The position numbers and the translations under genes were made by a program. Positions 38,729 to 39,638 of a DNA stretch of 64,000 nt are shown piece by piece. Each line of letters begins with the position of its first letter. Within the stretch, counting starts at the first letter, position 1. The notes under the pieces were generated by a model. That model searched no databases. It was not told the origin of the DNA and saw only the letters and a list, made by a program, of their open reading frames with translations. Origin of the DNA: Halopelagius inordinatus (GTDB taxonomy: Archaea; Halobacteriota; Halobacteria; Halobacteriales; Haloferacaceae); contig NZ_FOOQ01000001.1 of assembly GCF_900113245.1 (NCBI RefSeq), positions 558,001 through 622,000 on the forward strand. Reading direction: 5' to 3'.

Positions 38729-39178
38729 ATGAGCAACAGTTCGTTAGACGCCCTCCTCTCGGGGGTTCGATTCGGGAAGTTCGTCTCCGTCGGGGCCGTC
38801 GGTGCCGTCTTCGATATGGCGACGACGACGGCGCTCATCGTCCTCTTCGGCGTCCTCGGCGAGTACGCGAAACTCGCCGGCGCGGAAGTCGCCATCGTCG
38901 TCATGTTCCTGATAAACGAACACTGGACGTTCGCGGAGGAGGGCGCGGTCGGACTGCTCCCGACGGTTCGGCGCTTTCTCACCTCGAACCTCGTCCGAAG
39001 CGGCGGACTCGCTCTCCAGTTTCTGGTCGTCCGGGCGCTTCGGCAACTCGACGTCTCCGTCGTCGCCTTCGGGTTCGACTTCTGGCAGGTCATCCCGATT
39101 CCGATCGCGATAGCCGCCTCGATGCTCGTCAACTACGTCGCAGAGAGCACGCTCACGTGGCGCATCGCGCGGCCGTGA
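38729..39178 (+). CDS. GtrA family membrane protein
   Basis: A 149-residue protein with four hydrophobic segments. The GtrA start FGKFVSVGAVGAVFDMATTT and the NEHWTFAEEG loop are characteristic. GtrA proteins probably flip polyprenyl-phosphate sugars across the membrane. The start is 2 nt past the stop of the glycosyltransferase gene. Confidence 0.9.
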   Translation: MSNSSLDALLSGVRFGKFVSVGAVGAVFDMATTTALIVLFGVLGEYAKLAGAEVAIVVMFLINEHWTFAEEGAVGLLPTVRRFLTSNLVRSGGLALQFLVVRALRQLDVSVVAFGFDFWQVIPIPIAIAASMLVNYVAESTLTWRIARP

Positions 39179-39248: not shown

Positions 39249-39323
39249 AGCGGGATGGGATAGCCAGGAGATTCCGCCGGGCTCATAACCCGGAGACCGG
39301 TAGTTCAAATCTACCTCCCGCTA
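39249..39323 (+). tRNA. Initiator tRNA-Met (anticodon CAT)
   Basis: 75 nt fold as a tRNA. The acceptor stem AGCGGGA pairs with TCCCGCT, giving the A1:U72 pair of archaeal initiators. The anticodon stem is CCGGG/CCCGG with loop CTCATAA and anticodon CAT at 39284-39286; three consecutive G:C pairs also mark initiators. The T arm is GGTAG-TTCAAAT-CTACC. The discriminator is A39323 and the CCA is not encoded. Its 3' end recurs twice downstream. Confidence 0.97.
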
Positions 39324-39355
39324 CTTCTCCTGACACTCACTGTCCAAGCGGCGCG
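39303..39355 (+). repeat. 53-bp direct repeat, copy A (tRNA 3' end plus flank)
   Basis: The last 21 nt of the tRNA and the next 32 nt recur without a mismatch at 39586-39638, 283 bp downstream. Confidence 0.95.
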
Positions 39356-39443
39356 TCTCGGCGCGCCGCGACACCGACTTCGGTGAGTCGCTTACGGTAG
39401 TTTGAACGACGGAACGAGCGAGCAGGGCGAGCGAAGTTCCGGC

Positions 39444-39465
39444 AGTTCAAATCTACCTCCCGCTA
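39444..39465 (+). repeat. Second copy of the tRNA-Met 3' end (22 nt)
   Basis: AGTTCAAATCTACCTCCCGC-TA is identical to 39302-39323. It forms the 3' arm of a nested inverted repeat: TTTGAAC (39401-39407) pairs with GTTCAAA (39445-39451), with CGGAAC pairing GTTCCG inside. Confidence 0.95.
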
Positions 39466-39547
39466 TGGTTTTGCCGAACACGACATCTCCGAGCGAGGAG
39501 TCTTGGCTCGTCGCAGTACTCGTGTCCGGCATCCGTCGCACCGGGAA

Positions 39548-39594
39548 GATTTGAACCGGGGAGCGAACGTAAGTGAGCGACCGAGGTTCAAATC
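39548..39594 (+). repeat. Hairpin with tRNA T-arm sequence on both arms
   Basis: GATTTGAACC (39548-39557) is the perfect reverse complement of GGTTCAAATC (39585-39594). The right arm is also part of the third copy of the tRNA end. Confidence 0.9.
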
Positions 39595-39638
39595 TACCTC
39601 CCGCTACTTCTCCTGACACTCACTGTCCAAGCGGCGCG
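39586..39638 (+). repeat. 53-bp direct repeat, copy C (tRNA 3' end plus flank)
   Basis: Identical over 53 nt to 39303-39355. Its left edge overlaps the right arm of the 39548-39594 hairpin. Confidence 0.95.

What the first reader, a model, noticed from the sequence alone, without database searches (positions are those of the whole stretch)
39249..39638. Initiator tRNA-Met is followed by two further copies of its 3' end
22 nt of the tRNA tail recur at 39444-39465, and a 53-nt block (21 nt tRNA tail plus 32 nt flank) recurs exactly at 39586-39638. The three copies are spaced 142 and 141 nt apart. The tRNA 3' end is the classic attachment core of archaeal integrative elements, so this looks like a scar of repeated integration, excision or unequal recombination. 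No integrase gene remains in the window. The reuse of the flank after copy C shows that a 283-bp unit was duplicated or that an element carried the flank.
Basis: partly seen in the sequence, partly recalled or inferred. Interest (0 to 1): 0.72.

Follow-up and report, generated by a model that had tools for sequence, protein, structure and literature searches.

The report
tRNA-tail hairpin repeats across haloarchaea
The three tRNA-end copies are not a lone viral scar but one array of a previously unnoticed (as far as I could find) family of 90-150-letter hairpin units. These units sit behind many different tRNA genes throughout the salt-loving archaea and are gained, lost and swapped between close relatives.

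Summary
Initiator tRNA-Met (39249-39323) is followed by two exact copies of its last 21 nt and a 53-nt repeat. The scar reading is only partly right. The layout is tRNA - unit X (39324-39465) - unit Y (39466-39606) - truncated X' (39607-39638). X and Y belong to a family of ~90-150 nt units found behind 20-52% of tRNA genes in six genomes of four haloarchaeal families. A covariance model found the unit in 40 of 41 sampled haloarchaeal genomes and only weakly outside the class. Each unit carries its own tRNA's nt 52-73. Just upstream lies an inverted copy of the T arm, so the duplicate tail folds into a hairpin; the arm co-varies with the tRNA it follows. Units are gained, lost and exchanged whole: two Haloferax gibbonsii plasmids carry different units at the same tRNA. 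Integrase-bearing elements at these tRNAs use other att lengths, so the units are not their scars. E. coli tyrT/tyrV RtT repeats have the same plan but a different sequence. Most likely these are non-coding, modular units exchanged by recombination at the tRNA tail, with the inverted arm kept to sequester the duplicate tail. The enzyme and any RNA function are unknown.

The parts
39249..39323 (+). initiator tRNA-Met (CAT); its nt 52-73 (about 39302-39323) are the sequence that the units repeat
39324..39465 (+). unit X (142 nt): T-rich start, spacer hairpin, inverted T arm, hairpin 2, tail copy B
   Evidence: 72% identical to the X unit of Haloferax gibbonsii pHGLR2 over gapped alignment
39348..39369 (+). 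spacer hairpin of unit X (GCGGCGCG...CGCGCCGC)
   Evidence: fold
39396..39407 (+). inverted T arm of unit X (GGTAGTTTGAAC), pairs with tail B
   Evidence: fold; model hit 39396-39465, E=0.0005
39445..39465 (+). tail copy B (21 nt exact)
39466..39606 (+). unit Y (141 nt)
   Evidence: its start TGGTTTTGCCGAACACGACA follows the tRNA directly in the same-genus genome G001
39544..39557 (+). inverted T arm of unit Y (GGAAGATTTGAACC), pairs with tail C
   Evidence: I7; model hit 39544-39606, 63.4 bits, E=3.8e-15
39558..39584 (+). hairpin 2 of unit Y, GGGGAGCGAACGTAAGTGAGCGACCGA: pairs interleaved with tandem G.A mismatches
39586..39606 (+). tail copy C (21 nt exact)
39607..39638 (+). truncated third unit X' (first 32 nt of an X unit); with tail C this is the 53-nt repeat
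   Evidence: same terminal truncated X'/Y' units in Haloferax

Best explanation
The array is a local case of a haloarchaea-wide family of short non-coding 'tRNA-tail hairpin units'. Each unit is spacer (T-rich start plus hairpin), inverted T arm, a second hairpin, then a copy of nt 52-73 of the tRNA it follows. Shown: units sit in tandem directly behind tRNA genes; whole units are present, absent or exchanged at the same tRNA between close relatives with breakpoints at the tail; spacers and second hairpins are modular; and the inverted arm matches the T arm of the tRNA concerned. Inferred: whole units are added, removed and swapped by recombination between identical tRNA tails, either by a tyrosine recombinase acting in trans on the tRNA 3' end or by short-homology recombination and gene conversion in these polyploid cells. 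Also inferred: the arm is kept complementary, by repair across the hairpin and/or by selection, because a free second tail in the same transcript would compete with the real one for folding and 3' processing of the tRNA. In the window: tRNA - X - Y - remnant of X.
For: Prevalence: cognate tails at 17/45, 23/44, 8/22, 9/45, 7/27 and 13/26 tRNAs in six genomes of four families, against 0.6-7.8% for non-cognate tails, Fisher p from 8e-3 to 3e-31; an outgroup genome has 1/26. Copy limits are sharp at nt 52 and 73. Arm: 79% of 80 units sampled without selection have a cognate arm (at most 3 mismatches in 12) against 4.5% after shuffling; permuting tails among units gives p<=0.001; 72/80 pair in the predicted fold. 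Covariation: 43 cells changed on both sides against 16.9 in shuffles, 0/500. Turnover: filled/empty pairs at two tRNA-Tyr genes, Met-i and Pro between congeners; X versus Y at the same plasmid locus in two H. gibbonsii strains; arrays Y-X-Y', Y-X-X', Y-X', X-Y' and X/Y hybrids in Haloferax. Spread between tRNAs: Val-gac here and Val-cac in Haloferax share a 96% identical spacer while tail and arm both differ.
Against: No mobilising enzyme was identified, and no unit was found in IMG/VR viral contigs (exact patterns only). Presence/absence at a tail cannot separate insertion from tail-tail deletion. Simple site-specific recombination does not explain how a unit new to a tRNA acquires both a cognate tail and a cognate arm. 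Acceptor-stem nucleotides of the arm are not cognate (p=0.26), which weakens the idea that the arm exists purely to mask the whole tail. No transcript data were available.
Confidence: 0.6

Rival explanations
1. Scar of integrase-bearing elements: each tail copy is an attR left by a virus or plasmid that integrated at the tRNA 3' end and then decayed.
For: Archaeal elements do target tRNA 3' ends (PMC8371274). Five elements with integrases lie behind the tRNAs Glu-ttc, Leu-tag, Ala-cgc, Thr-cgt and Thr-ggt, and one of ~28 kb behind Arg-ccg.
Against: Those elements have att repeats of ~13, ~31 or ~55 nt, not nt 52-73, and their attR shows no inverted arm or hairpin. At Glu, Leu and Arg the element sits between the tRNA and a separate hairpin unit. 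Units share a conserved architecture and length at dozens of tRNAs, and tandem units at one tRNA share spacers, none of which is expected of random decay.
Confidence: 0.12
2. The units are functional RNA or transcription signals (terminator, processing or small-RNA modules) that each tRNA gene keeps by selection; repeats arise by ordinary tandem duplication.
For: Strong predicted folds (mean z -3.4), T-rich starts after tails, covariation, class-wide spread, and the E. coli analogue is annotated as a small RNA, rttR.
Against: About half or more of tRNA genes lack a unit, orthologous tRNAs differ in having one, and unrelated spacers replace each other at one locus within a species.
Confidence: 0.22
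3. Neutral by-product of replication slippage and hairpin template switching at tRNA genes, with no dedicated function or mobility.
For: Tandem identical units (His 107 nt, G039 111-nt series), arm correction expected of quasi-palindromes, generic GA-rich hairpins also found away from tRNAs.
Against: Spacers shared between different tRNAs and genera, and X/Y exchange between strains, need movement of units and not only local slippage.
Confidence: 0.2

Closest known systems
E. coli tyrT/tyrV RtT (rttR/tpr) repeats, Rfam RF00391
   Same: 178-nt tandem repeats directly behind a tRNA gene, each ending in a copy of the tRNA 3' tail, with an inverted T-stem segment (GGGGAAGGAT) and hairpins upstream of the tail
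   Different: No sequence or model similarity (RF00391 does not hit the window; R1 does not hit E. coli). To my knowledge restricted to tRNA-Tyr loci in enterics; here many tRNAs, many units, high turnover
Integrated elements of archaeal tyrosine recombinases at tRNA 3' ends (SNJ2, SSV, pT26-2 types; PMC8371274)
   Same: Use the tRNA 3' end as boundary and restore the tRNA; direct repeats of the tail
   Different: Units are ~90-150 nt, code for nothing, repeat nt 52-73, carry an inverted arm, and coexist with such elements as separate structures
Integron cassette arrays (attI/attC; archaeal integrons, PMC9668308)
   Same: Tandem cassettes behind one anchor site, each ending in a folding recombination-like site; cassettes are swapped
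   Different: No genes in the units, no GTTRRRY core (here GTTCRAA), anchor is a tRNA tail; no IntI shown

Membership tests
RtT repeats (RF00391) | match to the RF00391 covariance model | tested here: not met
   window region scanned at E up to 10: no RtT; E. coli control gives four hits
RtT repeats (RF00391) | tandem repeats beginning right after a tRNA gene, each ending in the tRNA 3' tail | tested here: met
tRNA-integrated element of a tyrosine recombinase | integrase gene inside the tail-bounded segment | tested here: not met
   segments are 142 and 141 nt; no PF00589 hit in the window
tRNA-integrated element of a tyrosine recombinase | att repeat equal to that of nearby integrase-bearing elements | tested here: not met
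   element att ~13/31/55 nt against nt 52-73 for units
tRNA-integrated element of a tyrosine recombinase | empty and filled sites between relatives with exact tail boundaries | tested here: met
   Tyr (two genes), Met-i, Pro; H. gibbonsii plasmids
Integron cassette array | attC core GTTRRRY / RYYYAAC in the folding site | tested here: not met
   core is GTTCRAAT / ATTYGAAC by direct reading
Integron cassette array | IntI integrase with its extra domain in the genome | not tested
   PF00589 hits listed but not typed
New haloarchaeal tRNA-tail unit family (model R1) | inverted T arm + hairpin + cognate tail nt 52-73 downstream of a tRNA | tested here: met
   window 39544-39606 E=3.8e-15 and 39396-39465 E=5e-4, neither used to build the model

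The most novel reading that the evidence does not exclude
A class-wide, gene-free cassette system: tRNA tails act as anchor sites, and the arm-hairpin-tail palindrome is a folding recombination site used in trans by a resident recombinase, which inserts, removes and swaps 90-150 nt cassettes behind tRNA genes, with the cassettes' ends rewritten to match each new tRNA.
Probability: 0.2. Interest if true: 0.85.

Novelty: new variant of a known kind. Interest (0 to 1): 0.7.

Why it matters
If right, tRNA gene ends in a whole archaeal class are decorated by a fast-turning-over family of small palindromic units that annotation pipelines miss. It gives a testable system for how repeats are born and moved at tRNA genes, how cells cope with a second tRNA 3' end in the same transcript, and why an unrelated bacterium (E. 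coli tyrT) shows the same plan. It also warns against reading short tail copies in haloarchaea as evidence of past viral integration.

Tried and rejected
Integrase scar: rejected as the main account (att lengths, hairpin, position of real elements). At first the Arg-ccg 28-kb element seemed to end in a hairpin unit; closer reading shows a 13-nt tail (CCCGTCGGGTCCG) before a separate unit. Duplication of one 283-bp unit: rejected, since X and Y are different units (66% identical overall) with separate histories. Full-length pairing of the arm with the acceptor strand: looked for, not supported (p=0.26). 'Arm matches another tRNA better' as a sign of recent immigrants: 46/127 units, but with ~35 alternatives per unit this is not a fair test and was not used. 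Viral carriers: exact patterns in IMG/VR found nothing. Known RNA family: none besides tRNA. Literature: searches for haloarchaeal tRNA-tail repeats returned nothing describing them; PMC9897764 treats archaeal tRNA fragments as products of integration or CRISPR only. The library is open-access only, so absence is not proof.

Full report
OBSERVATION. The window is a haloarchaeal chromosome stretch (G000:C1:558001-622000). The family is Haloferacaceae by inference: genome G264 carries the Haloferax profundi contig seen by name, which puts Haloferax in the same family. Initiator tRNA-Met lies at 39249-39323. Its last 21 nt recur exactly at 39445-39465 and 39586-39606, and the 53-nt block 39303-39355 recurs at 39586-39638. 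These are the only three copies in the genome.

A whole-genome search with the region found that the stretch 39548-39594 recurs at other tRNA genes of the same genome and of the congener G001, each time with that tRNA's own tail. Reading all tRNA neighbourhoods of both genomes showed the same plan again and again: tail | T-rich start and a spacer hairpin | inverted T arm (GGGATTTGAAYC type) | a second hairpin | tail. Cognate tail copies (20 nt, at most 4 mismatches, within 600 nt) follow 17 of 45 tRNA genes here and 23 of 44 in G001, against 0.6-0.8% for non-cognate tails and 1-2 cases upstream. Tested with the same rule, genomes of three other families and another genus gave 8/22, 9/45, 7/27 and 13/26 (Fisher p 8e-3 to 1e-11; the weakest, G017, has a high control rate, probably because some non-cognate tails fall in clustered tRNAs). 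A genome of the same phylum outside the class gave 1/26.

ANATOMY. Identity between tRNA and copy is 0.89-1.00 from nt 52 to nt 73 and drops to background upstream, and to about 0.5-0.65 and then lower downstream (the 20 conditioned positions are inflated by the search rule, the edges are not). In 79% of 80 units sampled without regard to the hairpin, an inverted copy of the cognate T arm (at most 3 mismatches in 12) lies upstream of the tail, most often 28-30 nt away; shuffled units give 4.5%. Reassigning tails among units makes the fit worse in every one of 1000 permutations. In 72 of 80 the tail T arm pairs with that arm in the predicted fold. An alignment of 30 units with one hairpin type shows 90% paired cells and 43 cells changed on both sides against 16.9 in shuffles; the T-loop purine pair alone is C-G in 15 and U-A in 12 (some of these units were found by a hairpin pattern, and relatedness inflates such counts). 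The commonest second hairpin, GGGAGCGAACGNAGTGAGCGACC, alternates standard pairs with tandem G.A mismatches around a GNA loop; this motif also occurs away from tRNAs, so units seem to recruit a generic hairpin. A covariance model of the alignment hits window 39544-39606 at E=3.8e-15 and 39396-39465 at 5e-4, neither of which was used to build it. It hits 40 of 41 genomes of the class sampled (2 to 22 hits each, 22 being the scoring cap), and 13 of the remaining genomes of the phylum, mostly with one weak hit. All 11 hits listed for this genome lie within about 220 nt downstream of a tRNA gene, once the intron-bearing tRNA-Trp is counted.

THE WINDOW ARRAY. Read with this grammar the window is tRNA - X (39324-39465) - Y (39466-39606) - X' (39607-39638, a 32-nt remnant). 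X and Y each resemble the X and Y units of Haloferax gibbonsii (72% and 73% over gapped alignment, against 65-69% for the crossed pairs), and their starts (TTCTCCTGA and TGGTTTTGCC types) recur throughout the genus Haloferax. The 53-nt repeat is therefore tail + start of X, twice. In the congener G001 the tRNA is followed directly by the start of Y. Among 29 other initiator loci of the family, 9 have one or two extra tails 135-150 nt apart and 20 have none within the stretch searched.

TURNOVER. Between congeners, tRNA-Tyr (two genes), Met-i and Pro give filled/empty pairs in which the homology resumes after the second tail, with shifts of 103, 118, 142 and 137. Two complete plasmids of H. gibbonsii (pHG2, pHGLR2) have near-identical flanks at the same tRNA-Met gene but a Y unit in one and an X unit in the other. 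Across Haloferax the arrays read Y-X-Y', Y-X-X', Y-X', X-Y', Y or X alone, with hybrids that join a Y spacer to an X hairpin. Spacers are shared between units at different tRNAs (43 pairs at E<=1e-6); the clearest is Val-gac here and Val-cac in Haloferax, 96% identical spacer, with both tail and arm switched to the local tRNA. Some of the other pairs may reflect generic hairpins.

RELATION TO INTEGRATED ELEMENTS. Genuine elements with integrases lie behind tRNA-Glu, Leu, Ala, Thr-cgt and Thr-ggt; their repeats are about 31 or 55 nt and their distal ends lack the arm and hairpin. At Glu and Leu in G001 one or more units follow the element's attR, so the element entered between the tRNA and an older array. 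At Arg-ccg a ~28-kb element ends in a 13-nt tail, again followed by a separate unit.

MECHANISM. Shown: units exist, their boundaries, the cognate arm, tandem arrays, whole-unit differences between relatives, modular spacers and hairpins. Inferred: exchange happens by recombination between identical tails. A site-specific tyrosine recombinase acting in trans and plain short-homology recombination would give the same junctions; my data do not choose. Spread to a new tRNA needs the tail and arm to be rewritten, for which gene conversion in polyploid cells and repair across the hairpin are plausible (own knowledge) but untested. That E. coli tyrT/tyrV repeats, unrelated in sequence, also place an inverted T-stem segment and hairpins before each tail copy points to a shared constraint, most simply that a second tail in a tRNA transcript must be masked. 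Against a pure masking role, the acceptor part of the arm is not cognate.

NOVELTY. I found no description in the open library; tRNA fragments in archaea are usually put down to integration or CRISPR. The kind (tail-bounded repeats behind a tRNA) is known from E. coli; the class-wide, many-tRNA, fast-changing family with a cognate inverted arm appears new.

Noticed in passing
L166 2502-2578, L167 2502-2578: Haloferax gibbonsii megaplasmids pHG2 and pHGLR2 carry their own initiator tRNA-Met gene, absent from the plasmid gene table (which lists no RNA genes), with hairpin units behind it. Plasmids of several other haloarchaeal genera also match this tRNA.
   Followed up: partly
L158 10700-19999 to L298 (G001:C1 about 40.7-68.5 kb): A ~28-kb element at tRNA-Arg-ccg with two tyrosine-recombinase genes and a 13-nt att repeat, inserted between the tRNA and an older hairpin unit.
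   Followed up: partly
L111, L112, L115, L063 and others: A second, shorter unit type (about 64-85 nt): a hairpin such as GTTCACCTCGC...GGTGAAC followed by only the T-stem 3' strand and acceptor end of the tail (about nt 61-73).
   Followed up: no
L156 972-1100: The GA-rich GNA-loop hairpin (GAGCGAACGNAGTGAGCGA) also occurs away from tRNA genes, suggesting a general dispersed hairpin in haloarchaea that tRNA units recruit.
   Followed up: partly
G039:C1:2656895-2657419: A tandem series of at least five units, the first four spaced exactly 111 nt, in a same-family genome.
   Followed up: no
window 38729-39178: ORF directly upstream of the tRNA with a hydrophobic sequence resembling GtrA-like membrane proteins; homologous DNA lies next to the initiator tRNA in the congener G001, by reading only.
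   Followed up: no
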